Assembly (NCBI RefSeq): GCF_027587195.1 | Contig: NZ_JAPDDP010000030.1 | Location: forward strand, 1-64,000 | Length of the DNA stretch: 64,000 nucleotides | Direction of reading: 5' to 3' | From: Solirubrobacter phytolaccae | GTDB lineage: Bacteria; Actinomycetota; Thermoleophilia; Solirubrobacterales; Solirubrobacteraceae | Position numbers and translations under genes: made by a program | Shown here: positions 5,811 to 38,125 of the stretch, one piece after another | Layout: each line of letters opens with the position of its first letter | Position numbering within the stretch: position 1 is the first letter of the stretch | The notes under the pieces: model-generated | What the model was told of the DNA's origin: nothing | Databases searched by the model: none | Seen by the model: only the letters and a program-made list of their open reading frames with translations

Positions 5811-6520
5811 GGACCGCGCTCGCCTTCCTCACGCGGCTGCCGGTCCCGCTCCCCAGCGACCCGGACCTGAGCCGCGCCGCGTGGACGTTCCCGCTCGTCG
5901 GCCTCGTCGTCGGTGCCGCAGCGGCCGGCACGAGGGCCGTGGCCGACCAGGTCCTCCCGCCGCTCCCCGCGACCATCCTCGCGATCGCCGTCGCGGTGCT
6001 GATCACGGGCGCGCTGCACGAGGACGGCCTCGCCGACGTCGCCGACGCCACCGGCGCGCACGTGGACCGGACAAGACGCCTCGAGATCCTCAAGGACCCG
6101 CGCGTCGGCGCGTTCGGCGCCACGGCGCTGATCCTCGCCCTCCTGCTCACGGCAACCTCCGTCGCCGCGCTCGACACCACCGAAGCCGTCAAGACGCTGA
6201 TCGTCGCCCACGTCCTGAGCCGCTGGGCGATCCTCCCCGTCGGCTTCCTCGAGCCCGCGAAGCCCGGCGGCGCCGGCAGCCTCCTGCGCCCCACCCCGAC
6301 CCGCCTCGCCGCAGCGACCGTGATCGGCGCCGCGATCGCGCTCGGAGTGGCCGGCCCGGCCGCGGGCGCGGTCGCCTTGGCGGCGGCCGCGATCACCACC
6401 GCGGCGGTCGCGCTCTTCCTCCACCGGACCCTCGGCGGCATCACCGGCGACGGCTACGGGGCCAGCGCGAAGCTCACCGAAATCGTCGTGTGCGTGACCC
6501 TGGTCGCATTCTGGGTGTGA
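5807..6520 (+). CDS. cobS: Adenosylcobinamide-GDP ribazoletransferase (cobalamin synthase)
   Basis: A 237-residue polytopic membrane protein that joins alpha-ribazole to adenosylcobinamide-GDP. Recognisable features are TRLPVP at the N-terminus, [16 protein letters not shown] near residue 64 (acidic metal-binding motif) and [10 protein letters not shown] near residue 212. The GTG at 5807 overlaps the previous stop (GTGA). It is the last gene of the overlapping cob operon; the riboswitch begins immediately after its stop. No cobT (lower-ligand phosphoribosyltransferase) is in the window. Confidence 0.92.
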
Positions 6521-6672
6521 CGTGCACTAGCATCCAGCCGTCAATAGCGAGGTGCGAGGAAAGCCGGTGCAAGTCCGGTGCGGTCGCGCCACTGTGACCG
6601 GGACCGCCCGGAAGCCAGGAACTTCACCGTCGCAACACGTCGCACTCTGCACCCGGGACGCACGATCCCGAG
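6521..6672 (+). ncRNA. Cobalamin (B12) riboswitch
   Basis: The core includes GGTGCAAGTCCGGTGCGGTC at 6566-6585, GCCACTGTGACCGGG at 6588-6602 and the B12-box-like AAGCCAGGA at 6612-6620, in the usual order. A closing P1-like stem can form between GTGCA at 6522-6526 and TGCAC at 6648-6652. Downstream, CGGGA/TCCCG at 6654-6670 can form a short hairpin directly against the Shine-Dalgarno AGGGAGGA (6671-6678). This suggests translational control of cbtB-cbtA: adenosylcobalamin binding would shut down cobalt uptake. The element starts at the cobS stop, so read-through operon transcripts would carry it too. The fold was inferred by eye. Confidence 0.88.
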
Positions 6673-23869: not shown

Positions 23870-25054
23870 GTGACCGCCAGCCAGGAGCCCCGCCGCCGCA
23901 TCGTGCGGGCCGACCCGCGCGACGCGACCGTCTCCCCGCTTGAGCTGTTCTTCGACCTCGTGTTCGTGTTCGCGCTCACGCAGGTCACGGCCTTCCTCGC
24001 CGAGGACCCGACGTTCGCGCAGCTCGGTCGCGGGCTCGTGATCCTGGCGATCATCTGGTGGGCGTGGTCGGGGTACGCCTGGTTGACGAGCACGGTCGAC
24101 CCGGAGCTGCTGCTGCCGCGGCTGGTGATGTTCGCGGCGATGGCGGCGATGCTCGTGATGACGCTCGCCACCCCGGGGGCGTTCGCGGACGACGGCGTGG
24201 TCTGGGGGCTCGGCTACCTGGCGGTGCGATTGCTGCACGCCGCGCTGTTCGCGCTCGCGGCGCGGGGGGACACGGCGCTGAGCAAGGCCGTGCTTAGCCT
24301 CGTCGGCTCGCTGATCCCCGGCGCGGGTCTGATCATCCTCGCGTCCGCGGCCTTCGAGCCGGGCACCACGCGCGACCTGCTGTGGATCGCGGCGCTGGTG
24401 CTCGACTACGGCATCGTGCTCAGCCGCGGCATCGGCGGCTGGCACGTGCACGCCGCGCACTTCGCCGAGCGGTTCGGGCTCGTGCTGATCATCGCGCTCG
24501 GGGAGTCGATCGTCGCCATCGGCGTCGGAGCCGAGGACATCGAGCTCACCGGGCAGGTCATCCTCGCTGGCGTGCTCGCGGTCGGCATCGCGTGCGTGCT
24601 GTGGTGGCTGTACTTCGACGTCGTCGCGGTGGTCGCGGAGCACCAGTTCGTCGAGGCGAAGGGGCTCGCGCAGCTGAAGATCGCGCGCGACTCCTACGCG
24701 CTGCTGCACCTGCCGATGATCGCCGGCATCGTGCTGTTCGCGCTCGGCGTGAAGAAGATCGTCGAGCACACCGCGGACCCGCTGAAGGACATGCCCTCGG
24801 TCGCCCTGTGCGGCGGGCTCGCCCTCTACCTGCTCGCGCACGTCGCGTTCCGGCTGCGCAACGTCGGCTCGGTCAACGTGCCCCGGATCGTCACCGCGCT
24901 CGTGTGCCTCGCGCTGATCCCGGTCGCGACGAGCGCGGCGGGCGTGGTCACGCTCGGCGTCCTGCTCGCCGTCTTCGCGGCGCTCACCGCGTTCGAGGTC
25001 GTCCGCTACGCCGAAGCCCGCGCGCGCATCCGCGCGGACCGCGTCGGGCGATAG
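23870..25054 (+). CDS. Low-temperature-requirement A (LtrA) family membrane protein
   Basis: A 394-residue polytopic membrane protein with about 10-12 helices. The family signature SPLELFFDLVFVFALTQV lies near residue 24, and a second signature, HFAERFGLVLIIALGESIVAIG, near residue 197. LtrA was named from a cold-growth mutant of Listeria; the molecular function is unknown. The GTG start is preceded by a -10-like element. A frameshifted second copy lies at 31549-32352. The hairpin at 25065-25085 follows the stop. Confidence 0.88.
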   Translation: MTASQEPRRRIVRADPRDATVSPLELFFDLVFVFALTQVTAFLAEDPTFAQLGRGLVILAIIWWAWSGYAWLTSTVDPELLLPRLVMFAAMAAMLVMTLATPGAFADDGVVWGLGYLAVRLLHAALFALAARGDTALSKAVLSLVGSLIPGAGLIILASAAFEPGTTRDLLWIAALVLDYGIVLSRGIGGWHVHAAHFAERFGLVLIIALGESIVAIGVGAEDIELTGQVILAGVLAVGIACVLWWLYFDVVAVVAEHQFVEAKGLAQLKIARDSYALLHLPMIAGIVLFALGVKKIVEHTADPLKDMPSVALCGGLALYLLAHVAFRLRNVGSVNVPRIVTALVCLALIPVATSAAGVVTLGVLLAVFAALTAFEVVRYAEARARIRADRVGR

Positions 25055-25064
25055 CTCAGACGCG

Positions 25065-25085
25065 CCGCGTTCCCGCATAACGCGG
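25065..25085 (+). terminator. Hairpin after ltrA
   Basis: CCGCGTT (25065-25071) pairs perfectly with AACGCGG (25079-25085) across a 7-base loop, beginning 10 bases after the ltrA stop. There is no T-run, as is common for actinobacterial terminators. Confidence 0.45.
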
Positions 25086-25157
25086 ACGTTCGCTGGGCAG
25101 GACTGGGCGGTCGGCCAGTTCCAACCGTCCTCACGCCCGCCTAGGATCGACCCAGTC

Positions 25158-25313
25158 TTGTTCGAACGCCGTACCCCACCGCCCCGCCTGAGCGTCTTGG
25201 AGCCGGGGCGGCAGGCCACGCGCCGGCGTCGAAGAGTCCCGCTGCTGGTGCTGGTCCCGGTGGTGCTCGCCGTCGCCCTGACGACGGCGGCCGTGCTGGG
25301 CTCGCTGGCCTAG
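25158..25313 (+). CDS. Small single-pass membrane protein (51 residues)
   Basis: A short frame from TTG at 25158 to TAG at 25311-25313. The first 30 residues are basic and hydrophilic, with RRRRR just before a hydrophobic helix (about residues 28-50) that ends two residues before the stop. This is a typical N-in topology. TAGGAT at 25142-25147 could be a -10 element 10 bases upstream. I do not recognise a family. Supporting evidence is the coding-like third-position G+C bias and the clean basic-then-hydrophobic layout. It could still be chance. It is convergent with the DUF2188 gene, whose stop begins 5 bases later. Confidence 0.5.
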   Translation: MFERRTPPPRLSVLEPGRQATRRRRRVPLLVLVPVVLAVALTTAAVLGSLA

Positions 25314-25317
25314 CGAG

Positions 25318-25524
25318 CTATCCGCGGTCTGAGACCGCGATCTCGCGCGTGCGGCGGTAGCGGTCGTGAAGCACGACGCTGCTGCACGAGAACCGGCGGG
25401 CGGCGAGGCGCGCGGCGCGCTCGGCGTCCGTAGCCGTGTGGTGTTCCGAGACCCGCTCCGCTTCGTGGCGCACGAGCCACGATCCGCGCTGGTCAGGTTC
25501 GACGTGAATGGTGCTGGTGCTCAT
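25318..25524 (-). CDS. DUF2188-family small protein
   Basis: A 68-residue protein with the layout of DUF2188: an N-terminal beta strand, GSWLVRHEAERVSEHHTATDAE, an Ala-rich helix and VVLHDRYRRTREI at the end. The function of the family is unknown; members occur as single copies or fused units in many bacteria. The ATG at 25524 gives the full domain; longer upstream reading is antisense to nothing known and unlikely to be coding. An inverted repeat at 25542-25560 lies just upstream. Confidence 0.7.
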   Translation of the reverse strand: MSTSTIHVEPDQRGSWLVRHEAERVSEHHTATDAERAARLAARRFSCSSVVLHDRYRRTREIAVSDRG

Positions 25525-25541
25525 GAGGACGGGCTCTCCGC

Positions 25542-25560
25542 TGGACTCCGGGTGAGTCCA
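25542..25560 (-). other. Inverted repeat between araC-type gene and DUF2188 gene
   Basis: TGGACTC (25542-25548) and GAGTCCA (25554-25560) form a perfect 7-bp stem with a 5-base loop. It lies between the stop of the AraC-type regulator (25566) and the start of the DUF2188 gene. It may be a terminator for the former or an operator for the latter. Confidence 0.4.
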
Positions 25561-25565
25561 CTGTG

Positions 25566-26426
25566 TCAGGCGTTCGAGGGATGACGGTGAAGATCGCGAT
25601 ACGACCGAGGCGCCACACCGTAGCGCCGTTTGAACGCGCGAGAAAAATAAAGTTGGTCCTCGAATCCGGTGCGATAGGAAACCTCGCCGACCGCTAGATC
25701 CGTGAACCGCAGCAATCGTGCCGCTTCCAGCATCACGCGTCCAGTTATGAGCTGTTTCGTCGTCTGCCCGGTGACGGTCGCGAGGGTACGTGAGAGCGCC
25801 GCGGCGGGCACGGCGAGCTCGTCCGCGTACCAGGCCGCGTCGTGGTGCGCCGCGAACGACCGCTCCAGCAGCGCGACGAAGCGGCGGTAGAGCGCGACGT
25901 CCGCGTCGTCGCCGCGCTCGGCGTGAGCGCCCTCGTACCAGCGCTCGATCCACAGCAGCAGCGCCGAGAGGAAGTGGCGCACCAGCTCGGCGCTGCGGAC
26001 GTCGGCGGGCCGCGCGGCCTCCGCGCCGAGGATCGCGATCGTCGCCTCCAGCCCCGCCACGGACGACGGTGGCACCTCGACGGTCAGCGCTCCACGCCCG
26101 CCGACGAGCCACGCCGGCGCGTCCAGCACCAGCTCGCTCTCGAACCGCACGACCGCGCCCGAGAAGACCGCGCGCTCGAGCACGTGCACGCGCCCCTGGC
26201 CGATCACGGTGAGCGTCCCGGGCCGGATCGGGAACGCCTCGCCGTCGACCGCGTGGGTGCCCTCACCCCGGCGCGTCCACAGCAGCTCGTGGTAGCCGTG
26301 CCGGTGCGGAGCCCGCGCGCCCCGCTCGGCCGCCGCGCCCGCCGCGAAGTCCTCGAGCTGGACGACCTGCAGCGCGCCCGACAGGTGGTCGACGGGAAAG
26401 TCCATGTGTCCGCGAGGGGTTGCCAT
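25566..26426 (-). CDS. AraC-family transcriptional regulator
   Basis: A 286-residue regulator. The N-terminal cupin-like sensor domain (about 25-130) has HRHGYHELLWTRRGEGTH. The C-terminal pair of helix-turn-helix motifs includes WYADELAVPAAALSRTL and FEDQLYFSRAFKRRYGVAPRSYR, the standard AraC ending. It is divergent from the VOC-protein gene, so that gene is the likely target. The ATG at 26426 is used; an ATG at 26405 is an alternative. The ligand is unknown. Confidence 0.9.
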   Translation of the reverse strand: MATPRGHMDFPVDHLSGALQVVQLEDFAAGAAAERGARAPHRHGYHELLWTRRGEGTHAVDGEAFPIRPGTLTVIGQGRVHVLERAVFSGAVVRFESELVLDAPAWLVGGRGALTVEVPPSSVAGLEATIAILGAEAARPADVRSAELVRHFLSALLLWIERWYEGAHAERGDDADVALYRRFVALLERSFAAHHDAAWYADELAVPAAALSRTLATVTGQTTKQLITGRVMLEAARLLRFTDLAVGEVSYRTGFEDQLYFSRAFKRRYGVAPRSYRDLHRHPSNA

Positions 26427-36064: not shown

Positions 36065-36640
36065 ATGGATGGCCTCATGTCGACGTTCGCCGATCCGCCC
36101 AGGCAGGTCGCCTGGCGCCACAAGGACCTCCGCGAAGGCTTCGAGGTCGTCTTCATCGAACCGCGCTGGACCGTCGAGGGCGCGACCACCGCGGTCGAGG
36201 ACGGCGCGGCCTTCGCCGTCCAGTACGCGATCGACCTCACTCCGGACTGGGTCACCCGCGGCGCCCGCGTGGCGTCGTTCGGGCGCGAGGTGCAGCTGCT
36301 CGCCGACGGCGACGGAAGGTGGTTGGTCGACGGGGTCGCGGTGCCGTCGTTGGACGGTGTGTTCGACGTCGACCTGGAGTCGTCCTCGTTCACCAACGCG
36401 TTCCCGGTGCACAGGTTGGCTCTGGCCGTCGGCGAGACGGCCGACGCGCCCGCGGCGTGGGTGCGCCGTGACACGCTCGCTGTGGAACGTCTGGAGCAGC
36501 GGTACACGCGGCTCCCGGATGACGCGGACGGGCGTTCGCGGTTCGACTACTGGTCGCCGGACCTATCGTGCGAGCTGCTGTACGACGAGTTCGGGCTGGT
36601 TCTGGACTACCCGGGAATCGCAGAGCGCGCGGCGGTCTGA
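36065..36640 (+). CDS. Putative glycolipid-binding protein
   Basis: A 191-residue soluble beta-rich protein. It fits the putative glycolipid-binding family (formerly DUF1089): EGFEVVFIEPRWTVEG near residue 24, FPVHRLAL near residue 113, and the C-terminal RFDYWSPDLSCELLYDEFG and LVLDYPGIAERA. Its structure resembles lipoprotein-localisation folds; its role in cells is unclear. ATG 36065 is used; ATG 36077 is a good alternative. The gene stops 2 bases before the large palindrome at 36643. Confidence 0.78.
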   Translation: MDGLMSTFADPPRQVAWRHKDLREGFEVVFIEPRWTVEGATTAVEDGAAFAVQYAIDLTPDWVTRGARVASFGREVQLLADGDGRWLVDGVAVPSLDGVFDVDLESSSFTNAFPVHRLALAVGETADAPAAWVRRDTLAVERLEQRYTRLPDDADGRSRFDYWSPDLSCELLYDEFGLVLDYPGIAERAAV

Positions 36641-36642
36641 AA

Positions 36643-37094
36643 AACGGCCATCGAGGGGGAAGGGAGCTGGAGCGCCGCCCGCGCCGGCTTCGGTGGGCGT
36701 CCGCTCGGGCTCCGCGCGGTGTTCCCTCGTGCCCGGGTGCCGGGATACCGTCAAGTTACGGGCACCGGAGAATCCGAGGAGCGTTCGTGGTCACATTGAT
36801 CCGCTACACGTCCGGTCGACCAAGGCCGCGCACGACCGCGCTTCGAACAAAGGGGGTGCCGCAATCTACTTCCGCCAGGTGGAAGTAGATTGCGGCACCC
36901 CCCTCCCCGCGCCCGTTCATCGACCGGAAATCGATCACGCCGAGCCCAGGAGCGACGGACGAGGGACGATCTTCGATGACCGTAACTTGACGGTAGGCCT
37001 GCACGCCAACCCGACCATGCCGCGCGGAGCCCGAGCGGGCGCCAACCGGAGCCGCGCGAGTGAAACGCAGCTCCCTTCCCCCTCGATGGCCGTT
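36643..37094. repeat. 452-bp imperfect palindrome: two inverted copies of a ~220-bp repeat
   Basis: Left copy 36643-36873 and right copy 36881-37094 are inverted relatives sharing blocks of perfect identity: 36643-36669 with 37068-37094 (27 bp); 36702-36719 with 37020-37037 (18 bp); 36746-36761 with 36980-36995 (16 bp, containing AACTTGACGG); 36812-36819 with 36920-36927 (8 bp); and the central 36852-36873 with 36881-36902 (22 bp). Intervening segments differ in sequence and length by amounts that are not multiples of 3, so a shared protein is unlikely. It fills the whole gap between two convergent genes. It could be a pair of related 3'-end elements, a bidirectional terminator or a mobile palindrome. 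Confidence 0.85.
36852..36902. terminator. Perfect 22-bp hairpin at the centre of the palindrome
   Basis: Arms 36852-36873 and 36881-36902 pair without mismatch around a 7-base loop that could add two more pairs. The outer ends are GGGGG/CCCCC. Placed between convergent genes, it is symmetrical and would form in RNA from either strand, so it fits a bidirectional terminator. No T-run is present. Confidence 0.6.
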
Positions 37095-37102
37095 GTTCGT
37101 CC

Positions 37103-38125
37103 CTAAGCCACTCGGCGTCGCACCCAGAAGAACGTCAGGCCCAGCAACGCACCCGAGACCAGCACGAACCCGATCGTCTCCACCGCCTGCAGCGTCCAGT
37201 AGCGACCCGCCGGCTGGTACACGACCCGCTGCCGGTACCCGAGATCGGCGAAGCGCTTGAAGCACGCCGGGTCGGCGAGCGGCGCCATCCGCTCCGGGTC
37301 CGGCTGCACGCACGAGGCCAGCCACGACGGGTACTCACCGACCGCGTTCCCATCCTTGTCGACCGTCTCGTTGGCGATCATCCAGGCGCCCGGCTGGGCG
37401 CTCTGCACGCGGACCTCCTTCACGACGCCGCCGGCCTCGGGCGGGCCGTCGAGGAGGAAGCCGCCGAGGTTCTCACCCGTGACGGTCATGGTCTCGGTCA
37501 CCGGGCTCAAGTGCGCGCGGATCAGCGGCGGCACGGTCAGCTGGACGGCGGCGAACACGGCCGCGGTGATCGCCATCGCGGGCACGGTGCGGCGCAGGAC
37601 GGTGCCGAGGAGCACGCCCAGCGTGAACGCGAACGCCGCGTACCCGGCGGGCACGATCCCTCTTGAGGCGTACAGCACCGGAGACATGCGCGGCTGGCCG
37701 GCGATGCCCTGGCCGTCGGCGCCGGCGATGAGCGCGTCGTCGATCACGTGCGTCCACCAGGTGAGGACGAGGCCGAGCGCGACGGTCGCGGCCATCGCGG
37801 CGCCGCCGATCAGGAGCACCTTGGTCAGCAGCCAGCGGGTGCGGGTCACGCTCTGGTTCCAGACGAGCCGGTGGGTGCCGGCCTCGAGCTCGCGCGCGAC
37901 GAGCGGGGCGCCCCAGAACATGCCGATGACCGCGGGCAGCAGGAGCATCGCGATCGTCACGAACGTGTAGGCGTTCACGCGCGTCTTGTCGGCCATCAGC
38001 AGCTCGACGGCCTGCTGACCGGCGGCGGGCGCGCCGACCACGAGCAGCAGGAGCGCGAGCAGCGCGGCGGCCGCGCCGACGACCGCCGCCGGGAACCGGA
38101 ACTGGCGCCAGGTGAGCCAGATCAT
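37103..38125 (-). CDS. ABC transporter permease
   Basis: A 340-residue membrane protein with about six helices: one at the N-terminus (about 12-35), a cluster at 60-230, and one at the C-terminus (about 308-330). A long external loop lies between about 235 and 300 and contains Cys residues. The N-terminal MIWLTWRQFRFP is typical of permeases paired with YtrA-regulated ATPases. The substrate is unknown. A Shine-Dalgarno GGAGGTGG precedes the ATG, which overlaps the ATPase stop (ATGA). The stop is 8 bases from the palindrome edge. Confidence 0.85.
   Translation of the reverse strand: MIWLTWRQFRFPAAVVGAAAALLALLLLVVGAPAAGQQAVELLMADKTRVNAYTFVTIAMLLLPAVIGMFWGAPLVARELEAGTHRLVWNQSVTRTRWLLTKVLLIGGAAMAATVALGLVLTWWTHVIDDALIAGADGQGIAGQPRMSPVLYASRGIVPAGYAAFAFTLGVLLGTVLRRTVPAMAITAAVFAAVQLTVPPLIRAHLSPVTETMTVTGENLGGFLLDGPPEAGGVVKEVRVQSAQPGAWMIANETVDKDGNAVGEYPSWLASCVQPDPERMAPLADPACFKRFADLGYRQRVVYQPAGRYWTLQAVETIGFVLVSGALLGLTFFWVRRRVA

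What the first reader, a model, noticed from the sequence alone, without database searches (positions are those of the whole stretch)
36643..37094. A 452-bp imperfect palindrome of two inverted ~220-bp repeats between convergent genes
Perfectly matching blocks (27, 18, 16, 8 and 22 bp) alternate with diverged stretches of unequal length in two inverted copies. Length differences between blocks are not multiples of 3, which argues against a duplicated coding region. Each copy begins within 8 bases of a gene stop codon and points into the same gap. This could be a pair of homologous 3'-end elements, a bidirectional terminator, a structured RNA pair or a palindromic mobile element. I know of no named family matching the blocks.
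Basis: partly seen in the sequence, partly recalled or inferred. Interest (0 to 1): 0.72.

Follow-up and report, generated by a model that had tools for sequence, protein, structure and literature searches.

The report
Repeated long palindrome between convergent genes
The 460-base palindrome is one copy of a previously undescribed family of large fold-back DNA repeats scattered through Solirubrobacter genomes, mostly filling the gap between the ends of two genes that face each other, and probably a mobile, REP-like element that may also act as a two-way transcription stop.

Summary
The imperfect palindrome (36639-37098) lies between two convergent stop codons and folds far better than shuffled sequence (RNA z -15.7, DNA z -13.3). 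It is not unique: it is one of about 16 copies in its genome, and related copies occur in S. taibaiensis, S. deserti and S. soli. No Rfam match was found.

The element is mobile or was: in three congeners the same two genes abut or overlap with nothing between them. Of 48 scored copies, 36 sit between convergent genes, often within 10 bp of a stop codon.

Its centre is a 51-nt hairpin whose stem sequence differs between copies but keeps pairing (19 of 24 pairs show double-sided changes). The same hairpin type also occurs alone or in pairs in all seven Solirubrobacter genomes, and inside long palindromes with different arms.

The closest known kind is REP/BIME/REPIN repeats. Size, hairpin type and the lack of a linked transposase gene differ, so membership is not claimed.

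Best explanation: a non-autonomous palindromic repeat that spread by insertion at gene 3' ends and is kept there, probably as a bidirectional terminator or 3'-end element. Insertion is shown by empty sites; the enzyme and the termination function are inferred.

The parts
36639..37098 (.). whole palindromic element (family A copy C93)
   Evidence: inverted repeats; fold z-scores; homologous copies
36643..36669 (+). outer arm block, left (AACGGCCATCGAGGGGGAAGGGAGCTG)
   Evidence: same tip in most copies
37068..37094 (-). outer arm block, right (inverted copy of the left one)
36685..36719 (+). second arm block, left
37020..37054 (-). second arm block, right
36748..36761 (+). signature 14-mer CCGTCAAGTTACGG in the left arm; 13 exact sites in the genome, all in copies of this family
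36980..36993 (-). signature 14-mer in the right arm
36852..36902 (.). central 51-nt hairpin GGGGGTG...CACCCCC, the most structurally conserved part; also dispersed on its own
36844..36851 (-). T-rich tract TTTGTTCG next to the hairpin on the minus strand, conserved in most copies outside S. soli; the only terminator-like tail found
36065..36640 (+). left neighbour gene, Glycolipid_bind (PF06475); its 3' end meets the element
37103..38125 (-). right neighbour gene, ABC-2 type membrane protein (PF12679); its 3' end meets the element

Best explanation
The feature is one copy of a non-autonomous, interspersed long-palindrome repeat (fold-back, MITE-like and REP-like) of the genus Solirubrobacter. 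SHOWN: it occurs in many copies; the unit that was copied is the whole palindrome; at the window locus it was inserted between two genes whose stops overlap or abut in three relatives; copies lie mostly between convergent genes, close to stop codons; the central 51-nt hairpin is kept by compensatory change while its sequence diverges. INFERRED: it moves by a transposase acting in trans, possibly on folded single-stranded DNA; insertion at gene 3' ends is favoured or is the only place tolerated; once there, the hairpin serves as a bidirectional 3' end (terminator or barrier to read-through) for both genes, which would explain why the hairpin survives when the arms decay.
For: About 16 copies in the own genome at 68-86% identity (sequences). 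Copies in S. taibaiensis, S. deserti and S. soli. C93 versus C66 85% and versus C33 83%, but C93 left versus right arm 68%. Window locus: overlapping or abutting convergent genes and no element in G003, G002/G001 and G006; C66 and C92 sites are also empty in G003. Context 36 convergent / 9 tandem / 3 divergent of 48, against 12 / 37 / 11 gaps in the window (binomial p 6e-5 for the own-genome 9 of 12). S. soli copies have sharp tips, usually 1-8 bp from both stops. Central hairpin: 84.8% of cells paired, 19 of 24 pairs changed on both sides, covariation 0.511 versus 0.168 in shuffles and at most 0.139 in slid controls. Hairpin kept in an eroded copy of G003 (C96b site) and alone at a convergent site in S. 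deserti (L046).
Against: No target-site duplication was found, even at sharp-ended copies. No autonomous partner or transposase with matching ends was found; Y1 transposase genes are not flanked by these repeats. The hairpin has no classical U-tract on the plus strand, and only TTTGTTCG on the minus strand. Isolated hairpins are not concentrated between convergent genes (7 convergent, 10 tandem, 3 divergent), and three S. soli copies lie between divergent genes. At the C92 site the element is present in three species but absent from the closest relative, so loss or repeated insertion must also occur.
Confidence: 0.6

Rival explanations
1. It is a giant REPIN/BIME-type repeat spread by the genus's own single-copy Y1 (RAYT-like) transposases, which act on the folded single strand; any effect on transcription is a by-product.
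For: Y1_Tnp (PF01797) genes, 1-3 per genome, in six of seven Solirubrobacter genomes. Full-length tips of families A, B and the S. soli type begin with GTGG, a REP guide tetranucleotide is GTAG or GTGG (PMC6006769). REPs between convergent genes lie under 20 bp from both 3' ends, may supply the stop codon, and in some species sit inside longer palindromes (PMC3733652).
Against: None of ten Y1 loci examined carries a family A, B or C repeat or the central hairpin within about 3 kb. Units are 450-560 bp, not 20-110 bp. No REP-type hairpin directly follows GTGG in most tips. G004 has no Y1 hit but still has the hairpins.
Confidence: 0.25
2. It is a decayed MITE of a classical DDE insertion sequence; palindromy is only long terminal inverted repeats, and convergent gaps are where insertions do no harm.
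For: Dispersed, palindromic, gained and lost between species; two arm families share the same outer tip GTGGAGCTCAGCTCGGGTGGCGCGC.
Against: No target-site duplication; tip pairs in S. soli lie about 375-780 bp apart, with no longer transposase-bearing version seen. Convergent gaps are the shortest gaps of the genome (several negative), so harmless-space alone predicts few hits there. The covariation of the central hairpin is not expected of a dead MITE.
Confidence: 0.15
3. It is a DNA-level structural site (cruciform or gyrase/nucleoid-protein target) that absorbs supercoiling between convergent genes, comparable to what is known for E. coli BIME-2 (from general knowledge).
For: Position between convergent genes. 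Changes in the hairpin stem restore Watson-Crick pairs; G-T pairs (20) are about as rare as A-C mismatches (17), so there is no sign of selection on one RNA strand only.
Against: The same lack of wobble bias follows if both strands are transcribed. Position does not separate this from termination. No protein binding motif was tested.
Confidence: 0.1
4. It encodes or is a structured non-coding RNA with a function in trans.
For: Extreme fold stability and conserved structure.
Against: No promoter-like site in the element, no Rfam family, fold is symmetrical on both strands, and the arms diverge freely.
Confidence: 0.05

Closest known systems
REP / BIME / REPIN repeats with RAYT (TnpAREP) transposases (PMC3733652, PMC3116915, PMC6006769)
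   Same: Dispersed, intergenic, palindromic; next to 3' ends and commonly between convergent genes within a few bases of both stops; single or paired hairpins; tip GTGG in full-length copies; Y1 transposase genes exist in the same genomes; nesting inside longer palindromes is described for a few REP families.
   Different: 450-560 bp nested palindromes instead of 20-110 bp; tens rather than hundreds of copies; 51-nt hairpin of fast-changing sequence; no association with the Y1 gene; most described REPs are in Proteobacteria.
MITEs and other small mobile repeats of bacteria such as RU/ERIC-type units (PMC2229807, PMC2759123)
   Same: Non-autonomous, inverted-repeat ends, intergenic, insertion polymorphism between species.
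   Different: Fully palindromic with a conserved central hairpin; no target-site duplication; no known partner element; strong preference for convergent gene ends.
Intrinsic bidirectional terminators
   Same: Strong GC-rich hairpin just after both stop codons; on one strand followed by a short T-rich stretch.
   Different: Far larger than needed; no U-tract on the other strand; dispersed as a mobile family.

Membership tests
REP/REPIN-RAYT | short (20-40 bp) palindromic unit at high copy number, alone or as inverted pairs | tested here: not met
   the window element is 460 bp with about 16 copies; only its central 51-nt hairpin occurs alone and in pairs, tens of sites per genome
REP/REPIN-RAYT | GTAG or GTGG tetranucleotide 0-2 nt before a hairpin | tested here: inconclusive
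   full-length tips begin with GTGG but no fully paired 7-20 bp stem follows in most; the window copy lacks the tip
REP/REPIN-RAYT | RAYT gene flanked by the repeat | tested here: not met
   Y1_Tnp genes present, but no repeat within about 3 kb at ten loci
REP/REPIN-RAYT | location at 3' ends, convergent gaps, under 20 bp from stops | tested here: met
   36 of 48 convergent; many gaps to the stop under 10 bp
MITE of a DDE insertion sequence | terminal inverted repeats | tested here: met
MITE of a DDE insertion sequence | target-site duplication | tested here: not met
   none at sites compared with empty orthologues or at sharp-ended S. soli copies; old copies could have lost it
MITE of a DDE insertion sequence | autonomous element with the same ends | tested here: inconclusive
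   tip searches of the own genome and S. soli found no long version; draft assemblies break at repeats
Intrinsic terminator | GC-rich hairpin followed by U-tract | tested here: inconclusive
   one hit on the minus strand with tail CCTTTGTTCG; 0.4 expected in shuffles
Intrinsic terminator | RNA 3' ends at the hairpin in vivo | not testable with these tools
   needs Term-seq
Rfam RNA families | covariance-model match at gathering score | tested here: not met
   no match in the element or in seven related loci

The most novel reading that the evidence does not exclude
Solirubrobacter carries a modular class of mobile palindromes in which one fast-evolving hairpin module is housed at the centre of several arm families, inserts at convergent gene ends and installs a two-way 3' end there, so that a mobile repeat rewires transcription boundaries genus-wide.
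Probability: 0.25. Interest if true: 0.75.

Novelty: new variant of a known kind. Interest (0 to 1): 0.55.

Why it matters
Long palindromes are normally unstable in bacteria, yet here 450-560 bp nested palindromes are kept in many copies, sit between convergent genes and hold a hairpin whose sequence turns over while its pairing is preserved. If the hairpin ends transcription on both strands, this would be a mobile repeat that acts as a ready-made convergent terminator. If the Y1 transposases move it, the REP/RAYT concept would extend to much larger units and to a deep-branching actinobacterial lineage.

Tried and rejected
Known RNA family: no Rfam match. Transcription-factor operator: the palindromic 14-mer CCGTCAAGTTACGG occurs only inside these repeats in the own genome, so it is a family signature rather than a regulator's operator. 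Duplicated coding region: no protein family, and open frames across it are artefacts of high GC. Phage origin: no match to the 24-nt signature in the viral contig collection. Association with Y1 transposase genes by adjacency: none found. Another palindrome in the window: the 511-bp convergent gap at 25054-25566 has no inverted repeats and folds like shuffled sequence (z -1.7). A first named-genome pattern with two motifs found nothing. Literature searches for Solirubrobacter palindromes returned only incidental papers. One hairpin row was misanchored in the script; the count supersedes it.

Full report
OBSERVATION. The window holds an imperfect palindrome at 36639-37098, in four inverted blocks, between a Glycolipid_bind gene on the plus strand (stop 36638-36640) and an ABC-2 membrane-protein gene on the minus strand (stop 37103-37105). 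Its fold is far outside the shuffled range as RNA (z -15.7) and as DNA (z -13.3). The centre, 36852-36902, is a 51-nt hairpin with a 24-bp stem.

A DISPERSED FAMILY. A search of the own genome gave 70 matching segments that fall into about 16 copies, the best 85% identical over 469 bp (sequences). Several copies are cut by contig ends inside the repeat. Copies are more alike (83-85% for the two other long ones) than the two arms of the window copy are to each other (68%), so the palindrome existed before it was copied. Left and right arms differ in the same way in most copies. The 14-mer CCGTCAAGTTACGG, once in each arm, is found 13 times in the genome, always inside copies. An extended 24-nt signature is found in the named genome collection only in Solirubrobacter soli, S. 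deserti (and the same strain as sp. CPCC 204708) and S. taibaiensis. The species of the window itself is not named.

INSERTION. In G003, the closest relative seen, the two flanking genes overlap at a shared CTAG (both stops TAG) and there is no element. In G006 and G002/G001 the same two genes also overlap or abut without an element. So the window copy was most simply gained in the own lineage. The C66 and C92 sites are empty in G003 too (22-bp gap and overlapping ends). Other sites in G003 hold remnants: at C96b the central hairpin, a piece of arm and a tip survive. At the C92 site G000, G006 and G002 all carry an element and G003 does not, so losses or repeated insertions also occur. No target-site duplication was seen, also not at S. 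soli copies, which have sharp ends GSCGTGGCATCGG...CCGATGCCACGSC.

POSITION. Genes were called with a codon-usage script trained on the window. In the own genome 9 of 12 copies with both neighbours are between convergent genes, 3 tandem, none divergent. For S. taibaiensis, S. deserti and S. soli the counts are 11/3/0, 3/2/0 and 13/1/3. The total is 36 convergent, 9 tandem, 3 divergent of 48. The window background is 12, 37 and 11 of 60 gaps, and its convergent gaps are mostly near zero or negative in length. Limits: one 64-kb window as background, gene calls not curated, and two sites counted in more than one species.

THE CENTRAL HAIRPIN. Twenty-five hairpins from five genomes, oriented by their flanks, were aligned. 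With the 24-pair stem, 84.8% of cells pair against 64.1% in shuffles; 19 pairs have changes on both sides; 132 such cells against 51; covariation score 0.511 against 0.168, and at most 0.139 when the partner is slid. Wobble pairs are rare, and G-T is about as frequent as A-C, so there is no sign that only one RNA strand matters. This fits pairing in DNA or in both transcripts. Frequent quasi-palindrome correction during replication could also produce double changes without selection; this was not excluded. A covariance model of the hairpin finds it in all seven genomes of the genus, including G003 and G004 where the arms were not detected, often in pairs about 70 bp apart, and more weakly in 12 of 94 other genomes of the family, where the examples read are single hairpins without the arms. 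Its isolated copies lie in convergent (7), tandem (10) and divergent (3) gaps.

OTHER ARMS. The outermost tip of full-length family A copies, GTGGAGCTCAGCTCGGGTGGCGCGC, also begins a second family (B) of about 500 bp palindromes with different arms and other central hairpins. A further type (C), whose outer arms resemble B, contains one or two of the 51-nt hairpins at its centre and folds as strongly (z -20.2 for L322). The S. soli type folds with z -16.2. So the window element belongs to a class of nested palindromes with a modular centre.

MECHANISM. Shown: amplification of the whole unit, insertion between genes, preference for convergent 3' ends, conserved hairpin. Inferred: trans-acting transposase, choice of target, termination. 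The genus has one to three Y1_Tnp genes per genome in six of seven genomes, the kind that handles REP repeats, but none is flanked by these repeats or by the hairpin. The terminator scan finds the hairpin with tail CCTTTGTTCG on the minus strand only; this flank is conserved in most copies outside S. soli.

COMPARISON. REP repeats are the nearest known kind: most REPs between convergent genes lie under 20 bp from both 3' ends, their termini often supply the stop codon, and in some species they are nested within longer palindromes (PMC3733652). REPINs are inverted REP pairs that move with RAYTs (PMC3116915), and typical REPs carry GTAG or GTGG next to a hairpin (PMC6006769). The present elements behave similarly in position and share GTGG tips, but fail on size and on linkage to the transposase. 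They are therefore reported as a new variant of interspersed palindromic repeats, not as REPINs.

Noticed in passing
window 6504-6645 (+): Cobalamin riboswitch (RF00174, 35.1 bits).
   Followed up: no
L145-L150, L156, L159, L160, L162 (own genome): A second family (B) of about 500-bp nested palindromes after stop codons, sharing only the outer tip GTGGAGCTCAGCTCGGGTGGCGCGC with the window's family; centres hold hairpins such as GATCCGTCAGTTGACCCCC...GGGGGTCAAGTGACGGATGACGG, up to three in a row.
   Followed up: partly
L313, L322, L326, L329 (own genome and G003): A third arm type (C) with GTGAGGAGGGTTCCCCTCAC hairpins and one or two of the 51-nt hairpins at the centre.
   Followed up: partly
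L236-L245: Single-copy Y1_Tnp (RAYT-like) genes; several (L236, L239, L241, L243) lie in the same gene order in different species, suggesting vertical inheritance.
   Followed up: partly
L013, L015, L025, L027: Four contig ends of the own assembly lie inside element copies at mirror-image positions near the CCGTCAAGTTACGG motif, so the repeat breaks the draft assembly.
   Followed up: no
L247 positions 1499-2283 (S. soli): One element followed directly by a second copy that lacks its left end, a tandem arrangement with three tips.
   Followed up: no
L036 near 1604 (S. deserti): An element end seems to supply the start codon (CTCGATG) of the next gene, and some other ends seem to supply the stop codon of a neighbour.
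   Followed up: no
window 25054-25566: A 511-bp gap between convergent genes with no inverted repeat; it may hold small genes missed by the gene calls.
   Followed up: partly
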